Assembly: GCA_021463195.1 (NCBI GenBank)
Contig: JAJTXZ010000002.1
Coordinates: forward strand, 1-64,000
Length of the DNA: 64,000 bases
Direction: 5' to 3'
DNA from: Anaerolineae bacterium
Lineage (GTDB): Bacteria; Chloroflexota; Anaerolineae; UBA4142; SHND01
Below are positions 52,199-63,425 of this stretch, piece after piece (positions within the stretch are counted from its first letter, which is position 1; each line of letters begins with the position of its first letter). The notes beneath the pieces were generated by a model. That model did no database searches, was not told the DNA's origin, and saw only the letters and a list, made by a program, of their open reading frames with translations. Made by a program: the position numbers and the translations under genes.

Positions 52199-53128
52199 TC
52201 AAGGGATGTTAAAGCCGCCCGTCATAAAGATAACAACGGTGGGGCCCAATAACACGATAAAGATGGAGGGAAAGACTAAAAAGGCGAGCGGAATCAACAT
52301 CTTGATTGGCGCTTGATTCGCTTTTTCTTCGGCGCGTTGGCGGCGCTTGACGCGCATTTGTTCGGATTGGATCCGCAGTACTTTGCCGATGCTGACGCCC
52401 AGTTGGTCGGCTTGGATGATAGCGGCGATGAAATTTGTAAAATCGGGCACTTCGATGCGCGCGGCCATATCACGCAGCGCTTCGCGGCGCAATTTGCCTA
52501 CGCGCATTTCGCTGAGCGCGCGTCCGAACGCATGACTCAATTCATTATCCCATTTGTCCGCCACTTTGCCCATTGCCGCATCGAAACCCAGTCCAGATTC
52601 GACGCTGATGGTCAATAAATCCATCGCGTCGGGCAGCTGCTTTTGAATCTTGTGTTGGCGCGCGCGGATAACGCGATTAAGCCACAGCAGCGGAAAATAG
52701 AAACCTAAAATGCCGCCGATGCCCAAAAATAGCAAAATCATGCCCGGCTGCATTCCAAGCACAAAAGCGAGCGCGGTGCCAAGTCCCGCGATAGAAATGG
52801 CTGCTAGTCCGCGCAAGCCGACAAAATCCGCCGGCGCCCAATTATTCGGATTGCCCGCCAAATCGAGTTTGTGCCGAATTTGTTCTACATTGCGCTGTGG
52901 CGTAGTGCGCGACAAGAGGCGCGCCAAGCCGCGCATTAACGGCAAAAGGGCGCGCTCGGTAAAGGGCTGCTGCAGTTCAATTTCTTCGAGCGTGCGCGGT
53001 TGCACGCCGTACATTTGCAAGCGTTCTTGGGCGGGGCTGGGCGTCTGCGCGTTGCGCGAGATGCCCAGAAATAGAATGATTATCGCAACCGCCATTAAAC
53101 CTGCGACGAGCAATGGAAGCAGTGGCAT
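52199..53128 (-). CDS. tadC: Tad pilus inner-membrane platform protein TadC (GspF family)
   Basis: 309 aa, T2SF (PilC/GspF) membrane protein with helices at ~5-25, ~110-150 and ~275-305. Central T2SF domain: IQKQLPDAMDLLTISVESGL, GFDAAMGKVADKWDNELSHA, GRALSEMRVGKLRREALRDM, PDFTNFIAAIIQADQLG. Works with TadB to form the pilus assembly platform above the TadA ATPase. Last gene of the operon, 7 bp from TadB. Confidence 0.92.
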   Translation of the reverse strand: MPLLPLLVAGLMAVAIIILFLGISRNAQTPSPAQERLQMYGVQPRTLEEIELQQPFTERALLPLMRGLARLLSRTTPQRNVEQIRHKLDLAGNPNNWAPADFVGLRGLAAISIAGLGTALAFVLGMQPGMILLFLGIGGILGFYFPLLWLNRVIRARQHKIQKQLPDAMDLLTISVESGLGFDAAMGKVADKWDNELSHAFGRALSEMRVGKLRREALRDMAARIEVPDFTNFIAAIIQADQLGVSIGKVLRIQSEQMRVKRRQRAEEKANQAPIKMLIPLAFLVFPSIFIVLLGPTVVIFMTGGFNIP

Positions 53129-53135
53129 ACCTCAC

Positions 53136-54113
53136 CTACACTTCGATATTCGTGATTTTGCGAATGACTAGAAAGCCGATGACAATCATGATAAAGCCGA
53201 CGGCGAGCATGAGCAAGCCGCAGTTGCTGGTCCACAAGCGCGAAATGTATTGCGGGTTCAATGTAAAAATGAGAAGCCCTAAAATGATGGGCAGCGCGGC
53301 GAGAATATAACCCGAAAGACGCTGCTGCGCCGTGATGGTGCGAATTTCGCCCAAGATGCGAATGCGTTCGCGGATGGTATGCGCGATATTGTCGAGAATT
53401 TCGGCTAGATTGCCGCCGACTTCGTGTTGCACGTTGATTGCCGTAATTAACAAATCCAAATCATCGCTCGGCACGCGCCGATACATGTTTGCCAAGGCGG
53501 TTTGTGTGGTCAAACCCAAGCCGATTTCGCGCGTCACGCGCTGCAATTCGGTTGACATGGGCGGCGGCAATTCTTTGGAGGCGGTCTCCATAGATTGGAG
53601 CAGACTATAGCCCGAGCGCATCGAGTTCGCCAATAGGACAATGGTATCGCCGAGTTGATTATTGAACGCGTTCAGGCGGCGGTCTTGCAAAAAGCGCACA
53701 TACATTCGCGGTCCGTAAAAACCGACTAGCGCTCCAACCAAAGCTAAAACAAAGCCCGAAGTCGTCGTGCCGCCGCCCAATATGAGCCCCAGAAATGCGC
53801 CCAGCGCGACGGCGCCGAGATTCAACATGACATATTCGCCGGGGGTCAAGCGCAAATCCGCGCGCGCGAGTTCGGCGGAAATCGAACTGCTGCGCTCTTC
53901 ATTGACCAATCCCTCAAAGCGTTCGCCGCGTCCTTTTTTGGGTTGGGTCTCAGCGGGCGCGGCGGACCGCGCGGCATAGCGATCGAGACGCGTTTCGATG
54001 ATTTCATTGCGTCCGGACAGCACGCGCGCGAGTCCCAAGAATAAAATCAGAATGGCGCCGGCAAACACCGCTGCCATAATGATTGGAAGTGAAATAAACC
54101 CGTCTAAACCCAT
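53136..54113 (-). CDS. tadB: Tad pilus inner-membrane platform protein TadB (GspF family)
   Basis: 325 aa. Helices at ~10-30, ~100-150 and ~265-320; T2SF domain FNNQLGDTIVLLANSMRSGY, SLLQSMETASKELPPPMSTE, LQRVTREIGLGLTTQTALAN. Paralogous partner of TadC. In this family TadB is the larger, first of the two. 66 bp after the TadA stop. Confidence 0.92.
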   Translation of the reverse strand: MGLDGFISLPIIMAAVFAGAILILFLGLARVLSGRNEIIETRLDRYAARSAAPAETQPKKGRGERFEGLVNEERSSSISAELARADLRLTPGEYVMLNLGAVALGAFLGLILGGGTTTSGFVLALVGALVGFYGPRMYVRFLQDRRLNAFNNQLGDTIVLLANSMRSGYSLLQSMETASKELPPPMSTELQRVTREIGLGLTTQTALANMYRRVPSDDLDLLITAINVQHEVGGNLAEILDNIAHTIRERIRILGEIRTITAQQRLSGYILAALPIILGLLIFTLNPQYISRLWTSNCGLLMLAVGFIMIVIGFLVIRKITNIEV

Positions 54114-55604: not shown

Positions 55605-56918
55605 TTAACTGCGTCCGAATAGCGCAAAACGTTTCTTGGGTTTAGCTGTTTTAGTTGGCAAAGCCGCCGCCGCGGCGTTCTTGGCATTGGACGAAGACGC
55701 TTCAGCCGGAATGGGTTCGCGCTTGAGCATTCGCGCCATCGAGAACAACGCCTGACTAAATGGAATCCCGCGCTGTGTAAGCACAACCGGGATGCCGCGC
55801 GTGAGCGCAAGCGCGGTGGCTTTGTCATCGCGCGGCACCAAGCCCGTAATCGGATGCTTGATGATGGCTTCAAGGTCGCGCGCGTTGAGATTGGATTTAT
55901 CGTGGCGATTTAAAATGAGCATCGTTTTAGCGGGCGGATATTCAAGTTTTTGCGTGACTTCAAAAAAGAGTTTGGCGTCTTTGAGCGCGCTCATTTCGCC
56001 AGTGGCAACCAGGACGATTTGTTCTGCTAAATCAAATACGGTCAGCAAGGGGTCGTTGAGCGCTTTGCCGGTGTCCACCACAATATAGTCAAACATTTTT
56101 TGTAACAGTTCAAGAATGGCGCGCAAATGGTCGGGCGTTACCAGTTCCGCCATTTCTGGCTGCGGCGGCGCGACCAATATTTTGACGCCGGAACTGTGTG
56201 TCACCAAGATGCCATTCATTAGAACTTCATCGGGGTCGCCTTTGGCTTCGATCACATCGGCGATGGTGCGGCTCGTCGGCAAATTTAGCAAGACGCCGAC
56301 ATCGCCAAATTGCAGGTTGGCGTCCACGATGGCGACGCGCGCGCGCGTTTCGCTTTGCAGCGCCAACGCCAGATTCACCGCGAGCGTGGAAACGCCGACG
56401 CCGCCTTTGGGCGAATAGAGCGCGATAATTTTTCCGACTTGGGGTTTACGCGGAATATATTGAATGTATTCGGCATCGGGGGGGGGGGCGAGTGGCGCGG
56501 GCGCGGGCATGGCGACGCGACGGGTGAGCGCGAGTTGATACACGCGGCGCAAACTATTGGCGAGCTCTTCGCTGGAAAACGGTTTAATTAAAAATTCGCG
56601 CGCGCCGGCGAGCATGGAACGGCGTAAATAATCGGCTTCGCCTTGCACCGACATCATGACGACTTGGATGTTGGGGTCTTGTTGTGAAATCAGTTCGCTA
56701 GCTTGAATGCCATCCATGCCCGGCATGTTAATATCCATTAACACAATGTCGGGTCGCAGCGCGGTAGCTTGTTCGACGCCTTCGCGTCCATTCGAGGCGG
56801 TGCCGATGATTTCAATATCATCCTCAAAATAGAGGAGTTTTTTCAAATTGTCGCGTGTTTCTTGAATGTCATCCACAATCAAGACGCGAATTTTTTTATT
56901 GTCACGCGAGACAGACAT
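55605..56918 (-). CDS. tadZ: Receiver-domain TadZ/CpaE-like polar localisation ATPase
   Basis: 437 aa. Residues ~8-125 are a true response-regulator receiver domain with the acidic pair (LIVDDIQE), phosphorylation site LMDINMPGMDG and Lys (KPFSSEEL). A Pro-rich linker (PAPAPLAPPPDAEYI) follows, then a MinD/ParA-like ATPase with deviant Walker A IALYSPKGGVGVSTLAVNLA (~168) and VVDTGKAL. TadZ places the pilus at a pole; here the receiver looks phosphorylatable, unlike the degenerate ones in many TadZ proteins. The linker contains an 11-C tract. Confidence 0.92.
   Translation of the reverse strand: MSVSRDNKKIRVLIVDDIQETRDNLKKLLYFEDDIEIIGTASNGREGVEQATALRPDIVLMDINMPGMDGIQASELISQQDPNIQVVMMSVQGEADYLRRSMLAGAREFLIKPFSSEELANSLRRVYQLALTRRVAMPAPAPLAPPPDAEYIQYIPRKPQVGKIIALYSPKGGVGVSTLAVNLALALQSETRARVAIVDANLQFGDVGVLLNLPTSRTIADVIEAKGDPDEVLMNGILVTHSSGVKILVAPPQPEMAELVTPDHLRAILELLQKMFDYIVVDTGKALNDPLLTVFDLAEQIVLVATGEMSALKDAKLFFEVTQKLEYPPAKTMLILNRHDKSNLNARDLEAIIKHPITGLVPRDDKATALALTRGIPVVLTQRGIPFSQALFSMARMLKREPIPAEASSSNAKNAAAAALPTKTAKPKKRFALFGRS
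56478..56488 (-). repeat. 11-base homopolymer tract in tadZ
   Basis: Eleven consecutive C on the coding strand (G on the plus strand) encode the PPP of the linker between receiver and ATPase domains. Long mononucleotide tracts in coding DNA are slippage-prone, and loss or gain of one base would abort the ATPase domain. Confidence 0.8.
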
Positions 56919-57921: not shown

Positions 57922-59976
57922 TTATTTCGCTTTTTTAGCGACTTTGAAACTCCACCATTCGGACCATTTGCCGCAACCGGCGCTATTGCAAGCTTTTACT
58001 TTCCAAACATACGTACGTCCTTTAGCCAATTTGGCTGTGGTTACTGAATTGGTGATGATGTTGGTTTTCTTGAAGGCTTTGGCGCCCTTTTTGCTATCGT
58101 ACTTTACCATGATTTTGAATTTTTGCGCGCAGGGTTCGCCTTGCCACGCCAAAGGCACTTGGCGCACGAACAGGTTCGCGCCTTTGTTAGGCGAGACTTG
58201 ACTCTCGCGTCCGGGTTTGCCTTTGCAAGGTGTGTTGGTCACAGTGGGCGTAAGCGAAGGCAAACCTGTGCTTGTTGGCGTTGGCGATGGCGTCAACGAT
58301 GGTGTGACGGTCGGCGTAGCCGTTTGCGTTGCCTGCGTGGTCGCGGTCGGCGTCCAAGTCGGAGTGGGCGTATTGGCCGGTCCGGTGGTTGGCGTATTGG
58401 TCGGCGTCGGCGTCGGTGTCGGGTCTTGTTCAAAAACCAATTCGACGGCGTTCAGACGCGGCGATTTGTTAATGTAGGTTGTGGCAAAAACCGCTTGGTA
58501 TTGCAGATAACGCTGGTCTAGGCGCGTAGGAAAGGTTAGCGTGTTGGTAAAACCATTTGCGCTCTGCGCGGACGCGCCCGCCAGCGTCCAGCTCGCATTT
58601 TGGAGCGCGGTCAAATCGTTGGCGGCGCGATAATACAGTGTCAACGCCATTTTATTGTTGGACGTATCTTCGACGGCGGCGTTCCATTTGAGCGCCGTCA
58701 TGTGTTTATTCAGCCCGATATCAAACGGTTCGCCGATATATGTTCCATCGGGCGCATACGTTGATGCCGCGCCGGTGGTTGAACCGTGGTAAACGTTTTT
58801 CTTTGGTTGACCCTGTTTGTCATAACCGCCGACGATAAAAAGTTCGCCGCCGCTGTTTGCCGCGCTGCCGTGAAAAAAGCGCTCTTGCGGCAAGGGTTCT
58901 GTGACAATCCATTTGCCGGTCTGTGGACCCCAATCATGCAGCGAGCCGTCCGGCTCGATGAGCGCGGTCAATACTTTGGTGATCGCTTCGCTGTTGGCGA
59001 TGCCTTCTTTGCCGCCGACGACATAAATCGCGCCATTGTATTGAATGGTCCCGTGCGCGGTAAAGGCGTTCGTCAAACTGGTGTTGAGCCAATCGGGGTC
59101 GCCATTATCATGCAGCGAGCCGTCCTGATTAAAAGATGTATAGTATACGTCTGCGGATGCTTCCGACCAATCTTGGCCGCCTGTGATATAGAGAAAATCA
59201 TGCGCGGGGTCGTACCAAGTCACCGCGCCCAACGCGCTCAGCGCTTCCGGCAGCGGCATATCTTCAACGGCGTCGCTCAAACTTCCGTTGCTATCTTGAA
59301 TTGAGAGACGATAGACAATATCGCTGCCGCTTGCGCCGCCGCCAAGCACATATAGATTAGCGCCGCGCGCCACCGCGCCGGAATAGATCACTTCGGTCGG
59401 CAGATTTTTTACGTTCCATGATCCATTGAGCGCGCCGTTCGCGGCGATTTTTTTGTAATAGATTGTCTTGCTCGAGTTGCCATTCGCGCCGCCGCCAATG
59501 ACGTACAAAATGGGATCGGGATTGAACGCGATGACCGCCGCGGCGCCGGCGCGCGCGGCGGGCAGATTATCCGCCAAAGCCCAGCTCGAGGTGATATCTC
59601 CGACGGTGGAGGTTGTGGCGGAATAGATTGTGGTGTGATAGTTAACGCCGTCAAAGCCGCCGATAGCGTACAAAATATCGTTGTGAGAAACGAGCGCCAG
59701 TTCCGCGCGGTTGACGGGCAAACTGGTGGTGGCTTGCCATGGCGAACTTAGACCGACCGGCAAGAGCTGCACTTCGCCGTCATTCAGTTTGCGCAGCCCG
59801 GTCGCATAAAATTTCCCTTTGACAAAATCGTTTGTGGTAGTGTGTACGCTTTTGCACACCAAGCCGTTGCAATCTTGCGAATCGGCGCGCAAAGGGCGCA
59901 AGCCCAACATCAACAGAGTCGTCAGTAAAAATGCTGCCGCGCCGAGTCCGAGCAAAATTTGATTTCGTGTCGCCAT
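57922..59976 (-). CDS. Surface kelch-repeat beta-propeller protein with Pro/Thr stalk
   Basis: 684 aa. Signal or anchor helix at the start (ILLGLGAAAFLLTTLLMLGL). Residues ~60-400 are kelch-type repeats (ELALVSHNDILYAIGGFDGV, GAAAVIAFNPDPILYVIGGG, YSGAVARGANLYVLGGGASG, TIQYNGAIYVVGGKEGI). Then a beta-sandwich region, a Pro/Thr stalk (PTPTPTNTPTTGPANTPTPT), and a fibronectin-III-like end (KGRTYVWKVKACNSAGCGKW). No catalytic residues of galactose oxidase are seen. It lies inside the Tad operon, so a pilus-linked surface adhesin is possible. Confidence 0.85.
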   Translation of the reverse strand: MATRNQILLGLGAAAFLLTTLLMLGLRPLRADSQDCNGLVCKSVHTTTNDFVKGKFYATGLRKLNDGEVQLLPVGLSSPWQATTSLPVNRAELALVSHNDILYAIGGFDGVNYHTTIYSATTSTVGDITSSWALADNLPAARAGAAAVIAFNPDPILYVIGGGANGNSSKTIYYKKIAANGALNGSWNVKNLPTEVIYSGAVARGANLYVLGGGASGSDIVYRLSIQDSNGSLSDAVEDMPLPEALSALGAVTWYDPAHDFLYITGGQDWSEASADVYYTSFNQDGSLHDNGDPDWLNTSLTNAFTAHGTIQYNGAIYVVGGKEGIANSEAITKVLTALIEPDGSLHDWGPQTGKWIVTEPLPQERFFHGSAANSGGELFIVGGYDKQGQPKKNVYHGSTTGAASTYAPDGTYIGEPFDIGLNKHMTALKWNAAVEDTSNNKMALTLYYRAANDLTALQNASWTLAGASAQSANGFTNTLTFPTRLDQRYLQYQAVFATTYINKSPRLNAVELVFEQDPTPTPTPTNTPTTGPANTPTPTWTPTATTQATQTATPTVTPSLTPSPTPTSTGLPSLTPTVTNTPCKGKPGRESQVSPNKGANLFVRQVPLAWQGEPCAQKFKIMVKYDSKKGAKAFKKTNIITNSVTTAKLAKGRTYVWKVKACNSAGCGKWSEWWSFKVAKKAK

Positions 59977-60076
59977 AATGGAATCGTCCCGATAATCTCA
60001 CGCGCTGCCTTGCTCAATTTCGAGTGGGCAGCGCGTGAGTTCGTTCAATGTTCTGTGAAGCGGAGGCGTTCAGATC

Positions 60077-62350
60077 TTATTTCGATTGTTTACACACCAG
60101 ATCATCCGTCTTGAGCGAGAGGTTCTTTTCGTACGTCCCCGCCCCCGTCCCGATTTCAATGGATGGCGGGTCGCTCAGCACAGGACCGCCTACGCCATCG
60201 GTAAAGATATCATAAGTGAGTCCGCTGATATTGACGGTGATGGATTGGAACTCGTAGGTGCCCGGGGCAATATTGCTGAACGCAAAATAGCCGGTCGAGG
60301 TTGTGGTTGTGCTTAATGTGGCGCCGGTATCTTTGTTGCGCACCCGCACCGTCACATTCGGTCCGAAAATTTCTTTTTGATTGGTGAGACATGTCTCGCC
60401 GGCAATGACATCAGAAATATCGTCATAGATTTGCTGCATCGAGCTGGCGTCGCTGGCAGTGTAGAAATGGTCGTCCACCGGTTCCGATGCGATGGCTTTT
60501 AGCGTTTCCGGATTAAAATCCGTTCCGATAGCAATCGTAAAGACGATTGCATCCGGTTTACCGTCGCCGTTACTATCTGATTTGGCGAGATTGGCTTCCG
60601 TGATAGCGTCCTGATCCGCTTGGCTATTGCACGTTAACGGATTGTATGTCATGCCGCCAAAGCCGGTGTATTGACCATTAAGCTTTACATTCGCGAGACC
60701 GTCCGATGCCAAGATAATCACCGGCACATGGGATGGATTGTGGAAATTTGGGTCCAACACCATCGCACGTCCTACAGACAATCCACCTGCGATGGGTGTC
60801 TTGTTCCCTGGTGTGAGCGAATTAATTGTCGATCTTACGCCTGGTATATCCGCGGTCAGGTCAATGCGTTTTTGACCGAATAGATATTCCCTAGTTGAAC
60901 CTTTATTATCGCAGTTGTATGAATATGCGTCTCTCTGGGGGCGGTTTTCCACCCTTGGAAAGGTCGCTAACCCGACACGGTCTCCGTCCGATTGACCGCC
61001 AATGGTAGTTGAAAGCACATTGTTAAAGCTGATGAGCGCGTTTTTGGCGGCAGTCATTTTCTTGACGGCGGGTTTGCCAAAAGACGAGTCCATACTGCCC
61101 GAGATGTCGAGAACATGGATGACATCCACCGGGACTTGGGACAAATCCACATCTTCCAAGGGCAAAAGCTGATTGATTTTGACCACGCCAATCAACGAGC
61201 GGGTTTCGTCAACCGGCGGATGAATGGTGTTTGTTACGATGCCGTAATTCGGGCAAGTGCCTTCGCACAGCGAGGTGGACCAATTCTGAAATTTGCCTTG
61301 CACGTAGGGATCGCTATTGTTAAATTGCTCAATACCGCATTCCCCTTGCTGATTATTAAAGCGGCAATATCCCGTCACCTTGAAACGCGCAAAGCCGACG
61401 ATATTGTACGTCAAATTATTTCCTGTGCCGTTTGCGGTGTCGTAAATCGGAATTGTAATAGACTGTCCAATATGGTCAATCCATTGTTGGCGCACCGCGT
61501 TGCTGTTCGAGACGCCGGTCGAACCGGATACATCGTCATCCACATACCATTTGCCGCTGCGAGTCGGGTCCGCCATGTTAGCGGCAAGCGTTGTGGCGGA
61601 TGAATTGTCGTCGCGCCAGCGCAGGTATCCGAAATTACCGGGGCCTTCGTCGCCGTCGCGGTCCCAAATTTGATAGTTGTATCCCGGGTCATTCTGTTCA
61701 AAGTGCATATCGCGAATGCCGTCTTTATTTTCATCCGGAAAAGTGGTTTGCGGGATCGTCACGGGAAAGAGATTGTCCGCGCAGCATGTGCCATTGGTAA
61801 TAACCGGCGGCGGTGTATTGGGCGGATTGGGCGGCGGCGCGCCGTAACCGGTGGAGGGCGCGCCGACAGTCATGGTCTTGATGCCGACGATGCCGGCAAA
61901 GAACGAGTTAAATTCTTTATTCGCCGTGACGTAAACCCCGACGACCGGCAATCCGTCAAGCGTGACGGGCGCGACGCTGCCAGTGCCAAGACCGCCCGCG
62001 CCGATGAGTTCGTCGTCAATGACGGATTGGCCCGTGTTATTGCGCGTCACATAATATGCTTTAATTGCGACGGCTTCTACGCCGTTACGCACTGCGGCGG
62101 TTTGGATCGCGGTCAAAACTTGACCGTTGGTTGCGCGGCAAATTTGATTGTTGATGCAGCCGGTATTGGGCTGCGCCAACCGTTGTCCGCCGGCGTACGC
62201 GGCGGCATCCACCGCATTTTGCACTTGGCGGCGCTGGGCATAGACATTTCCGCCGTCTACTGCCAGAGCCATAAATGCCATCAAGGCAGCCAAGCCGAGC
62301 GCTATCAAAATCATGGATTGCCCATGTTCCTGAGAAACTGTTTTGTTCAT
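60077..62350 (-). CDS. TadG-like Flp pilus protein with VWA and CNA_B-type domains
   Basis: 757 aa. N-terminal Tad region: SMILIALGLAALMAFMALAV, then DGGNVYAQRRQVQNAVDAAA (the Tad motif). VWA domain ~415-640 with MIDAS start DVIHVLDISGSMDSSFGKPA and later TFPRV and VIILASDGLANVK. C-terminal beta domain VTVRVRNKDTGATLSTTTTS, GYFAFSNIAPGTYEFQSI, a CNA_B/carboxypeptidase-regulatory fold. Likely a surface adhesin anchored by the N-terminal helix. Upstream of the kelch gene, 100-bp gap. Confidence 0.9.
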   Translation of the reverse strand: MNKTVSQEHGQSMILIALGLAALMAFMALAVDGGNVYAQRRQVQNAVDAAAYAGGQRLAQPNTGCINNQICRATNGQVLTAIQTAAVRNGVEAVAIKAYYVTRNNTGQSVIDDELIGAGGLGTGSVAPVTLDGLPVVGVYVTANKEFNSFFAGIVGIKTMTVGAPSTGYGAPPPNPPNTPPPVITNGTCCADNLFPVTIPQTTFPDENKDGIRDMHFEQNDPGYNYQIWDRDGDEGPGNFGYLRWRDDNSSATTLAANMADPTRSGKWYVDDDVSGSTGVSNSNAVRQQWIDHIGQSITIPIYDTANGTGNNLTYNIVGFARFKVTGYCRFNNQQGECGIEQFNNSDPYVQGKFQNWSTSLCEGTCPNYGIVTNTIHPPVDETRSLIGVVKINQLLPLEDVDLSQVPVDVIHVLDISGSMDSSFGKPAVKKMTAAKNALISFNNVLSTTIGGQSDGDRVGLATFPRVENRPQRDAYSYNCDNKGSTREYLFGQKRIDLTADIPGVRSTINSLTPGNKTPIAGGLSVGRAMVLDPNFHNPSHVPVIILASDGLANVKLNGQYTGFGGMTYNPLTCNSQADQDAITEANLAKSDSNGDGKPDAIVFTIAIGTDFNPETLKAIASEPVDDHFYTASDASSMQQIYDDISDVIAGETCLTNQKEIFGPNVTVRVRNKDTGATLSTTTTSTGYFAFSNIAPGTYEFQSITVNISGLTYDIFTDGVGGPVLSDPPSIEIGTGAGTYEKNLSLKTDDLVCKQSK

Positions 62351-62367: not shown

Positions 62368-62907
62368 CTAAGGATCAATTCGCATTACCGCCTGGCTTGA
62401 TACCCATATCGGTCCCAAAAATGTCATACTACCGCCGTTAATCCAAGTAACACCTAAAGTAGGCACTGGCGCGCGGAATTCGACGCGCACCGAGATTTGA
62501 GCATTGGGGACTCGCTCCGCCACATTGGTCGGCTCAACCGTAATCTCCAGCCCATCGCTATCTATATTTTCATTCGCGTTTTTAGCCTTGCAAGCGGCAA
62601 CGCTGCCGCCCAACATTACGCTGCTAGAACAAATCGCATTTTGAATTTGAGAATACGAAGCCGTAGGGTTGCCAATAATAAATCGCGCTCCTTCGCGCGC
62701 CGCCGAAACTGTGGTCAGCCAAGCAAAAAAGACAACCGCGAAACCAAGAAAGCCAATAAAGAGCATAATAAAGATTGAAAAGGTCAACGCAAACTCGACC
62801 ATCGCTTGAGCGTTTTCTGCGGACGCCGCGGCGCGGCGGCTGGGCGTGCTACGCTGCCGCGCGCGCTGCCAAATTAAACCAACGAGTGTTTGACGCTTCA
62901 TGGACAT
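62368..62907 (-). CDS. TadE-family pseudopilin
   Basis: 179 aa. Basic N-terminus (MKRQTLVGLIWQRARQRSTP), then the TadE signature AQAMVEFALTFSIFIMLFIG with Glu at +5-like position, a long hydrophobic helix and SAAREGARFI. The remainder is a pseudopilin-like globular part with cysteines. Starts at ATG 62907 (a second ATG at 62901). It overlaps the upstream TadE gene by 10 bp. Confidence 0.9.
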   Translation of the reverse strand: MSMKRQTLVGLIWQRARQRSTPSRRAAASAENAQAMVEFALTFSIFIMLFIGFLGFAVVFFAWLTTVSAAREGARFIIGNPTASYSQIQNAICSSSVMLGGSVAACKAKNANENIDSDGLEITVEPTNVAERVPNAQISVRVEFRAPVPTLGVTWINGGSMTFLGPIWVSSQAVMRIDP

Positions 62908-63425
62908 GCTACCGGGTCATACGTATTCGCTTCGCGAATCGGCATCGAAACGCCATATTGAATCCGATAGGACGAAGGCAACCCAAACCTTCCGACGAGC
63001 GGCAGATTTATCCCGCTCGTAAAAGTCGTCAGCGAATAGGTAACAGTGGTGGTGATAGGGCAGTTCTTTCCCACGTCGTTGGGACGAATTGTCGGCGGCG
63101 TGATCGTCAAGTTGTCATCCACATCCAAACCCAAGGCGATCGCTTCCGCTTTGATACGGTCCACATAACTGGTGCAAATCTCTTGGTCAATGCTGCAATT
63201 CTTTAAATCAGCTTCATTACGCAGCTCTGGATGCAGCGTGGCATACACCGCGCCTTCGCGCGCGGCATTAATCATTCCAATATACACAGTGAACGCCTGC
63301 GCCAATTCAAACGCCGCAATCAGCAAGAGCAGCAGCAAGGGAAAAGTAATTGCCATCTCCGCCAAACTTTGCCCATGCTCTGATTTTGCCGCGCGCTGAT
63401 TTTTTTTCGCGAAACGCTTTATCAT
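62898..63425 (-). CDS. TadE-family pseudopilin
   Basis: 175 aa. Classical TadE start HGQSLAEMAITFPLLLLLLI, then AAFELAQAFTVYIGMINAAR and EGAVYATLHPELRNEADLKN. Cys-containing C-terminal part. First gene of the visible operon. The pre-pilin peptidase (TadV) and the major pilin (Flp) are not in the window. Confidence 0.92.
   Translation of the reverse strand: MIKRFAKKNQRAAKSEHGQSLAEMAITFPLLLLLLIAAFELAQAFTVYIGMINAAREGAVYATLHPELRNEADLKNCSIDQEICTSYVDRIKAEAIALGLDVDDNLTITPPTIRPNDVGKNCPITTTVTYSLTTFTSGINLPLVGRFGLPSSYRIQYGVSMPIREANTYDPVACP

What the first reader, a model, noticed from the sequence alone, without database searches (positions are those of the whole stretch)
57922..62350. Large VWA and kelch surface proteins inside a Tad operon lacking a secretin
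TadG carries VWA and CNA_B-like domains, and an unrelated kelch propeller with a stalk is encoded next to it. With no RcpA secretin gene, the pilus is probably built across a single membrane. The two large proteins could be tip or surface adhesins delivered by the pilus machine.
Basis: inference. Interest (0 to 1): 0.5.

Follow-up and report, generated by a model that had tools for sequence, protein, structure and literature searches.

The report
Likely Tad pilus tip adhesin cassette
Next to the genes for a thin attachment pilus, this apparently single-membrane bacterium carries a probable pilus-tip adhesin and a secreted propeller-shaped partner protein, and the same gene pair recurs in relatives across its phylum, so it may be the business end of the pilus.

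Summary
Window 57922-62350 (minus strand) encodes a 684-aa secreted kelch propeller and a 757-aa TadG with a VWA domain, inside a Tad operon. The 4.7-Mb genome has no secretin or Omp85 match and a single T2SSE ATPase. Absence of secretins from Chloroflexota Tad loci is already published (PMC12488501).

New evidence: TadG-kelch is a conserved pair. Of 33 kelch matches in 99 genomes, 25 lie in Tad loci, including all 17 above 100 bits. Phylum-wide, 13 of 14 genomes with matches of at least 120 bits have it next to TadG; the fourteenth has it in a type IVa pilus operon. In 7 genomes of one family TadE-TadE-TadG-kelch stands without machine genes nearby.

TadG looks like the pilus cap: it keeps the prepilin Gly but lacks Glu5 in 33 of 33 sequences; TadE has Glu5 in 52 of 52. 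Its MIDAS residues are invariant in 20 of 20.

Most likely TadE/TadE/TadG form an adhesive tip with the kelch protein as non-pilin partner. Kelch at the tip is inference; a wall-anchored kelch protein is the main rival.

The parts
57922..59976 (-). Secreted kelch beta-propeller protein, 684 aa; proposed non-pilin member of the tip cassette
   Evidence: ORF; Pfam kelch; structure model mean pLDDT 81.3; best solved match kelch domain of NS1-BP (5yy8), VIA Z 36.4 over 277 residues, rmsd 2.1
59884..59976 (-). N-terminal signal sequence of the kelch protein (residues about 1-31; Sec type by eye, no prepilin G-x4-E motif)
   Evidence: Sequence read directly; helix 4-24 in the model; no signal-peptide program was run
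58762..59751 (-). Kelch propeller, residues 76-405, six GG doublets (106/107, 161/162, 212/213, 266/267, 321/322, 383/384)
   Evidence: Sequence and alignments; model and fold match
58426..58749 (-). Beta-sandwich after the propeller, residues 410-517
   Evidence: Aligned in the 24-row alignment A4; strands in model
58222..58419 (-). Thr/Pro-rich linker (stalk), residues about 520-585
   Evidence: Sequence; pLDDT below 50 for 523-579
57925..58179 (-). Fn3-like C-terminal domain, residues 600-684, a module that recurs at the C-terminus of other proteins of this genome
   Evidence: Pfam fn3 19.7 bits, cut-off 25; 16 further matches of the C-terminal part in the own genome; ends 0-3 residues before the stop in 10 of the 11 other proteins fetched
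60077..62350 (-). TadG-like minor pilin with VWA domain, 757 aa; proposed pilus apex and adhesin
62183..62323 (-). Prepilin-like GQS site and Tad helix of TadG, residues 10-56; Leu, not Glu, at +5
   Evidence: PF13400; Glu5 count
60386..61141 (-). VWA domain, residues 404-655, MIDAS residues D415, S417, S419, T518, D550
   Evidence: PF00092; the five residues invariant in 20 of 20 rows; VIA best match Mfa5 vWF domain 6tnj, Z 23.4, 199 residues, rmsd 2.4, 28% identity, tied with human CMG2 VWA domains at Z 22.8; Foldseek's first three rows are pilus adhesins SpaC (two) and PitA
60101..60385 (-). C-terminal beta domain of TadG (CarboxypepD_reg / SdrD_B-like), residues 656-750
   Evidence: Sub-threshold Pfam matches
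62368..62907 (-). TadE-like minor pilin 2 (Glu5 present)
   Evidence: PF07811
62898..63425 (-). TadE-like minor pilin 1 (Glu5 present)
   Evidence: PF07811
56942..57790 (-). RcpC/CpaB
   Evidence: PF16976 and SAF
55605..56918 (-). CpaE/TadZ-like protein: response-regulator receiver domain fused to a ParA-type ATPase
   Evidence: PF00072 and PF13614
54180..55583 (-). TadA ATPase; the only T2SSE-family match in the genome
   Evidence: PF00437; 1 match genome-wide
53136..54113 (-). TadB
   Evidence: PF00482; order and similarity
52199..53128 (-). TadC
   Evidence: PF00482; order and similarity

Best explanation
The window holds a tip cassette of a single-membrane Tad pilus: TadE-TadE-TadG-kelch. 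Two Glu5-bearing minor pilins and a Glu5-less TadG form the complex that starts pilus assembly and stays at its apex; TadG's VWA domain with its MIDAS residues is the adhesive or force-sensing head. The kelch protein is exported separately (Sec-type signal) and works as the non-pilin partner of this complex, displaying a propeller with six GG doublets on a variable stalk: a Tad counterpart of what PilC/PilY1 does for type IVa pili. Shown here: gene linkage, domain content, conserved MIDAS residues, presence or absence of Glu5, no secretin match. Inferred: tip position of TadG (about 0.75), functional partnership of kelch and tip pilins (about 0.6), kelch physically on the pilus tip rather than on the cell surface (about 0.4).
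For: Linkage: 25 of 33 kelch matches in 99 genomes (own included) are in Tad loci, all 17 above 100 bits among them; 19 of 21 long TadG genes have kelch as the next gene. Phylum-wide, 13 of 14 genomes with a match of at least 120 bits have kelch next to TadG, 9 of them outside the class in 3 families; in 7 genomes of one family TadE-TadE-TadG-kelch was seen with no TadA/B/C, CpaB or CpaE match in the 14-20 kb fetched. One multi-kelch relative lies between PilC-type and PilN genes of a type IVa operon. Apex: Glu5 in 52 of 52 TadE-type and 0 of 33 TadG-type proteins, all with Gly (once Ala) at -1; a tip complex capped by a subunit without Glu5 is the described rule in type 4 filaments (PMC10191384, passage read). 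Adhesin: MIDAS residues invariant in 20 of 20; the nearest solved folds include the pilus adhesins SpaC, PitA, Mfa5 and PilB of S. sanguinis. Co-evolution: kelch distances follow TadE1 (partial r 0.64) and TadG (0.55) beyond TadA, CpaB less so (0.43); 1 of 2000 permutations reached the TadG value (18 loci).
Against: No protein-protein contact was modelled or tested. The kelch C-terminal domain looks like a general module of the genome, which suggests surface anchoring rather than a place on the pilus. Kelch is not universal: TadA is in 77 of 99 genomes at 1e-70, a Tad-linked kelch match in 24. Kelch also accompanies TadG genes without a VWA match, 7 of 7 scanned, so the two domains need not act together. 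In G013 the TadG contig continues with unrelated genes. The TadG model is weak overall (pTM 0.40), and human VWA domains match it as well as Mfa5 does. The co-evolution test has 18 related loci and permutes labels without a tree model.
Confidence: 0.55

Rival explanations
1. The kelch protein is a cell-surface protein held by its C-terminal module in the wall or S-layer. It is co-regulated with the pilus and serves as a surface receptor or docking site near the pilus base, or as an independent adhesin; only TadG is on the pilus.
For: Sec-type signal by eye; the C-terminal Fn3-like domain ends 0-3 residues before the stop in 10 of 11 other own-genome proteins fetched. In the class outside the own genus, 18 of 18 Tad-linked kelch proteins with a complete C-terminus end in a short hydrophobic stretch with Pro and a basic residue, strict pattern in 12. 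Stalks range from a Thr/Pro linker to several DUF11 repeats. Sortase genes occur in 11 of 11 genomes searched.
Against: It does not explain why the gene stays with TadG where the cassette is apart from the machine genes, nor why its divergence follows the tip pilins.
Confidence: 0.3
2. The linkage is an accident of shared ancestry: kelch was inserted once and has been inherited with the operon without working with the pilus.
For: Gene order around it is conserved in the order; related genomes are not independent.
Against: Linkage extends to 11 families of the phylum, including cassettes without machine genes nearby, and one type IVa operon; the own genome has one match to the propeller at 1e-8.
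Confidence: 0.1
3. The kelch protein is a secreted enzyme (sialate mutarotase-like or galactose-oxidase-like) that happens to be in the operon.
For: Weak NCBIfam similarity to kelch mutarotases (27.4 bits against a cut-off of 243.2).
Against: Far below the family cut-offs; the 50 best solved matches are kelch domains of eukaryotic proteins or designed propellers. Catalytic residues were not examined.
Confidence: 0.05

Closest known systems
CpaL of Caulobacter crescentus Tad pili (PMC12607857, abstract and passages read)
   Same: Minor-pilin module fused to a VWA domain with MIDAS, predicted at the Tad pilus tip with two other minor pilins (CpaJ, CpaK)
   Different: A species with a secretin (CpaC); the word 'propeller' does not occur in that paper's main text
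Kil Tad pilus tip complexes KilL-KilM-KilN of Myxococcus xanthus (PMC12075869, passages read)
   Same: TadE/TadF/TadG-type minor pilins predicted as a tip complex; four paralogous cassettes in distinct gene clusters
   Different: KilN4's distal domain is described as unlike any characterised protein, not VWA; 'propeller' does not occur in the main text
PilC/PilY1 of type IVa pili (PMC13190605 and PMC9934059, passages read)
   Same: Non-pilin, large exported protein with a beta-propeller that accompanies tip minor pilins; about a third of published PilY1 proteins also carry a VWA domain
   Different: Here VWA and propeller are separate proteins; kelch-type propeller with six GG doublets and no PF05567 match; PilY1 is seven-bladed with a calcium site, which was not looked for here. 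Note that PMC13190605 mentions PilY1 homologs from Chloroflexota; whether this genome has one was not searched
PilA/PilB/PilC of Streptococcus sanguinis type IV pili (PMC9934059, passages read)
   Same: Single-membrane species; modular adhesive pilins and a Glu5-less subunit in a tip complex
   Different: Type IVa system; there the Glu5-less subunit is the small PilA and the adhesive modules are on PilB and PilC (PilC has Glu5)
Secretin-less Tad loci of Chloroflexota (PMC12488501, passages read)
   Same: Same phylum and system; a survey of 3,780 genomes reports Tad and type IVa loci without secretins
   Different: No kelch or tip proteins in the passages read

Membership tests
Tad (Flp) pilus system | TadA ATPase with TadB and TadC platform proteins | tested here: met
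   PF00437 and two PF00482 proteins in a row
Tad (Flp) pilus system | TadE/TadG-type minor pilins | tested here: met
   PF07811 twice, PF13400 once
Tad (Flp) pilus system | Flp major pilin | tested here: met
   One PF04964 match, 32.8 bits (cut-off 32.2), on another contig C76; a marginal score
Tad (Flp) pilus system | Prepilin peptidase | tested here: met
   One Peptidase_A24 match on contig C85, 55.6 bits
Tad (Flp) pilus system | RcpA secretin (diderm form only) | tested here: not met
   0 matches genome-wide; expected for a single-membrane species, so not disqualifying
VWA minor pilin (CpaL-like) | Pilin-type N-terminus followed by a VWA domain with MIDAS | tested here: met
VWA minor pilin (CpaL-like) | Located at the pilus tip | not testable with these tools
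   Inferred from lack of Glu5
PilC/PilY1 | PF05567 PilY1 propeller domain | tested here: not met
   Pfam scan of the kelch protein at E <= 0.01 gives kelch families and fn3, not PF05567
PilC/PilY1 | Genetic link to tip minor pilins | tested here: met
PilC/PilY1 | Physical contact with the cap pilin | not tested
   No complex prediction was run
Kelch propeller proteins | Kelch repeats in a closed propeller | tested here: met
   PF01344 above cut-off; model and Z 36.4

The most novel reading that the evidence does not exclude
Chloroflexota Tad pili carry a four-protein tip cassette, TadE-TadE-TadG-kelch, in which a Glu5-less, often VWA-bearing pilin caps the filament and a separately secreted kelch propeller docks on it: an independently evolved, single-membrane counterpart of PilC/PilY1. 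(One paper calls PilC/PilY1 absent in monoderms, PMC9934059; another lists PilY1 homologs from Chloroflexota, PMC13190605; the kelch protein itself is not a PF05567 protein.)
Probability: 0.35. Interest if true: 0.7.

Novelty: new variant of a known kind. Interest (0 to 1): 0.5.

Why it matters
In a published survey Tad loci outnumber type IVa loci in Chloroflexota (about 1,234 against 340 of 3,780 genomes; PMC12488501), yet their tips are undescribed as far as my searches show. A tip cassette recognisable by sequence would tell which proteins to look for at the pilus tip, and would suggest that pairing a VWA domain with a propeller at a pilus tip arose more than once. The Glu5 pattern found here is a simple sequence mark for the probable apex subunit of these Tad pili.

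Tried and rejected
VWA moved into the kelch protein: kelch proteins next to TadG genes without a VWA match were scanned for a VWA domain, as a sign of fusion or fission; none in 7 of 7 such pairs (L080, L091, L095, L096, L100, L101, L134), so there is no Rosetta-stone link between the two domains.

A secretin or outer-membrane assembly factor elsewhere: no match. A second type IV ATPase in the genome: no, one T2SSE match only.

Kelch as an enzyme: only sub-threshold mutarotase similarity; set aside. Promoter and terminator scans: more sites than in shuffles (10 against a mean of 5.6; 20 against 9.4), with one promoter-like site on the minus strand between kelch and CpaB (57828-57799), which could split the operon there; these are consensus matches and decide nothing.

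Literature: 'kelch'+'TadG' (2 papers, both unrelated by title), 'Chloroflexi'+'kelch'+'pili' (on cable bacteria), 'tight adherence'+'propeller'+'pilus' (14 papers, 12 listed, none on a Tad propeller protein by title and start of abstract), 'Chloroflexota'+'pilus'+'tip'+'beta-propeller' (on PilY1), 'Tad pilus'+'von Willebrand'+'tip' (10 listed), 'Anaerolineae'/'Tad'/'adhesin'/'TadG' (10 listed) showed no description of a Tad-linked kelch protein; only open-access papers are held.

Corrections to my notebook: it credits the 33 kelch matches to (they are), and says 13 of 16 motif-bearing ORFs are Tad kelch proteins (one search lists 12, plus 2 other kelch and 2 other proteins). A first Glu5 count used a loose pattern that mis-hit some rows; one search replaces it.

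Full report
What is there. On the minus strand the window carries, in order of transcription, TadE (62898-63425), TadE (62368-62907), TadG with a VWA domain (60077-62350), a kelch protein (57922-59976), RcpC/CpaB, a REC-ParA CpaE-like protein, TadA, TadB, TadC and a DUF192 protein. Upstream of TadE lie a histidine-kinase-like ORF that runs over the window's end, a LuxR-type response regulator (Pfam) and a second kinase-like ORF (the kinases named from sequence only). Kelch lies 100 bp after TadG and 131 bp before the CpaB ORF.

Envelope and machine. The whole genome (4.72 Mb in 143 contigs, 98% complete) has no secretin match, no Omp85 match (7 of 14 controls match), one T2SSE ATPase, which is this TadA, one Flp pilin candidate on another contig (32.8 bits, cut-off 32.2) and one prepilin peptidase on a third. 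Among 99 genomes of the sample, own genome included, 1 has a secretin, and that one has no TadA match at 1e-70. [quoted passage not shown] This part of the finding is correct but known.

Is the kelch gene linked to Tad? I searched 99 genomes with residues 1-520: 33 matches at E <= 1e-8 in 30 genomes, own included. I fetched the surroundings of all of them and mapped Tad genes by similarity to the window's proteins. 25 matches (24 genomes) are in Tad loci, 7 have no Tad gene in the 12-19 kb fetched (G023, G045, two in G061, one of two in G067, G077, G091; all partial and under 77 bits) and 1 (G062) starts at a contig end and cannot be judged. All 17 matches above 100 bits are Tad-linked. The linked genomes span 8 families of the class. 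The usual order is TadE-TadE-TadG-kelch-CpaB-CpaE-TadA-TadB-TadC. Of 21 long TadG matches (E below 1e-90, one cut by a contig end), 19 are followed directly by kelch (the one in G093 as a partial reading frame that one search did not list), one contig ends 0.2 kb after TadG (G015), and one (G013) is followed by unrelated genes, its kelch being on another contig with CpaB to TadC. Against the link: TadA is in 77 of 99 genomes, and the five Tad-type loci with a short TadG that I fetched without a kelch match (L112-L116) show none.

Beyond the class. A profile of the propeller and the following sandwich (A4, 24 rows) was run on 301 genomes drawn from the phylum, own included: 93 genomes match at 1e-12, most of them below 120 bits and over part of the model. 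I looked at every genome with a match of at least 120 bits: 14. In 13 the gene is next to a TadG gene (in G108 with a gap of about 0.8 kb, in G365 by the position of the profile match), including 9 outside the class in 3 families. In 7 genomes of one family the order is TadE-TadE-TadG-kelch, with no match to TadA, TadB, TadC, CpaB or CpaE at 1e-3 in the 14-20 kb fetched (the TadE genes were recognised in part by their GQxxxE leader). The machine of these genomes was not looked for elsewhere. The fourteenth (G115) has a kelch protein with 14 repeats in a type IVa operon, between a PilC-type platform gene and a PilN gene, with PilB- and PilT-type ATPases, a prepilin peptidase and an N-methylated pilin (Pfam). 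Weaker matches were not followed up. A search of named genomes returned 14 loci: the 9 best are Chloroflexota genomes in Tad loci, all with contig lengths equal to ones already fetched, so they name the sample rather than add to it; the 5 weak ones (one Anaerolineaceae, the rest from other phyla) show no Tad gene in the stretch fetched.

TadG as the cap. In type 4 filaments the tip complex is capped by a subunit without the otherwise conserved Glu5 (PMC10191384, passage read; PMC9934059, passages read). I aligned the TadE- and TadG-type proteins of loci L078-L116 to the window's (proteins whose best match was to another query, scored under 44 bits or began after residue 60 of the query were left out). 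Every one keeps Gly (one Ala, the window's own TadE2) at -1. At +5, TadE-type proteins have Glu in 52 of 52; TadG-type proteins have it in 0 of 33 and Ile, Leu, Val, Phe or Trp instead. The 8 TadG proteins outside the class listed also read Phe or Met there (found with a pattern that asks for a hydrophobic residue, so not an independent count). The sequences are related, so these are not independent events. TadG proteins of other phyla were not tested.

The VWA head. The five MIDAS residues (D415, S417, S419, T518, D550; motif as described in PMC12607857) are invariant in 20 of 20 aligned long TadG proteins. Foldseek's first three solved matches are the pilus adhesins SpaC (two) and PitA. In the VIA list the first row is the vWF domain of the pilus-tip protein Mfa5 (Z 23.4, 28% identity), but human CMG2 VWA domains (Z 22.8) are tied with it and many eukaryotic ones score within 3 units: the fold fits a tip adhesin and does not prove one. 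The model as a whole is weak (pLDDT 73, pTM 0.40). TadG genes without a VWA match, but with kelch beside them, exist in 7 loci; in the seven-genome family the VWA score is below cut-off (one scanned, 20.8 bits).

The kelch protein. The model is good for the propeller (most of residues 80-410 above 85 pLDDT), whose best solved match is the kelch domain of NS1-BP (Z 36.4, 277 residues). A short N-terminal motif before the propeller and a beta-sandwich after it align in all 24 rows. The stalk is variable: Thr/Pro linker plus Fn3-like domain in the genus; CARDB, Ig-like or DUF11 domains elsewhere. The C-terminal part has 16 further matches in the genome; in the 11 other proteins fetched the match ends 0-3 residues before the stop in 10 and is internal in 1. 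So it looks like a general C-terminal module, which could be an anchor. In the class outside the genus, 18 of 18 Tad-linked kelch proteins with a complete C-terminus end in a short hydrophobic stretch with Pro and a basic residue; a strict pattern fits 12 of them, and 16 of 969 ORFs of 150 aa or more in L077-L116. The seven-genome family and G241 do not end this way.

Do kelch and tip evolve together? In 18 loci with kelch, TadG and TadA, kelch distances correlate with TadE1 and TadG distances after removing TadA (partial Spearman 0.64 and 0.55), and with CpaB at 0.43; 1 of 2000 label permutations reached the TadG value, the other two were not permuted. This is suggestive, with few and related loci.

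Mechanism. Shown: a Tad locus without a secretin, with a conserved TadE-TadE-TadG-kelch unit. Inferred from established pilus biology: TadG caps the priming complex of minor pilins, assembly proceeds from it, and its VWA head is carried outward as the filament grows. Inferred with less support: the secreted kelch protein binds this complex, as PilC/PilY1 does in type IVa pili, and enlarges or changes its binding range. VWA and kelch are separable. The main rival is a wall-anchored kelch protein near the pilus base.

Known or new. VWA minor pilins at Tad tips (CpaL, PMC12607857) and TadE/F/G-type tip complexes in several cassettes (Kil, PMC12075869) are described; the absence of secretins is described. 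A dedicated propeller protein in the Tad tip cassette was not found in the searches listed under Tried and rejected. PilY1 homologs in Chloroflexota are mentioned in print (PMC13190605, passage read); this kelch protein is not one by Pfam. I rate it a new variant of a known kind.

Noticed in passing
57925-58179 and own-genome loci L005-L015: A Fn3-like domain recurs at the extreme C-terminus of 10 of 11 other proteins of this genome that were fetched: a possible general surface-anchoring or sorting module.
   Followed up: partly
L083-L101, kelch C-termini; L100:16251-17423; L101:16178-17350: A C-terminal hydrophobic motif with LP followed by hydrophobic residues and Lys/Arg ends many Tad-linked kelch proteins and a few other ORFs; a possible sorting signal in Chloroflexota. 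No literature search was made for it.
   Followed up: partly
L083:8546-9202, L084:10853-11440, L085:7467-8279, L091:10175-10894: In one family a Thr/Pro-rich LPxTG-type protein (LPSAG in L091) with a C-terminal hydrophobic stretch is encoded on the opposite strand between kelch and CpaB; the one scanned, of L084, passes the NCBIfam LPXTG anchor cut-off, and sortase genes are present.
   Followed up: partly
L143:8579-12055: A 14-repeat kelch protein inside a type IVa pilus operon of another Chloroflexota genome.
   Followed up: partly
L105:7878-9251, L107:2324-3592, L111:9248-10561: Proteins with a LuxR-type helix-turn-helix-like N-terminus followed by kelch-like repeats, apparently cytoplasmic regulators; seen from sequence only.
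   Followed up: no
L080 (G003 contig C48) 250-5428: A second Tad-type cassette in a genome of the same genus: TadE, short TadG without VWA match, a divergent kelch protein and CpaB.
   Followed up: partly
55605-56918 and L001:1770-4655: The CpaE/TadZ-like protein is a response-regulator receiver domain fused to a ParA-type ATPase, and kinase-like ORFs and a LuxR-type response regulator lie just upstream of TadE, so the pilus may be under two-component control.
   Followed up: no
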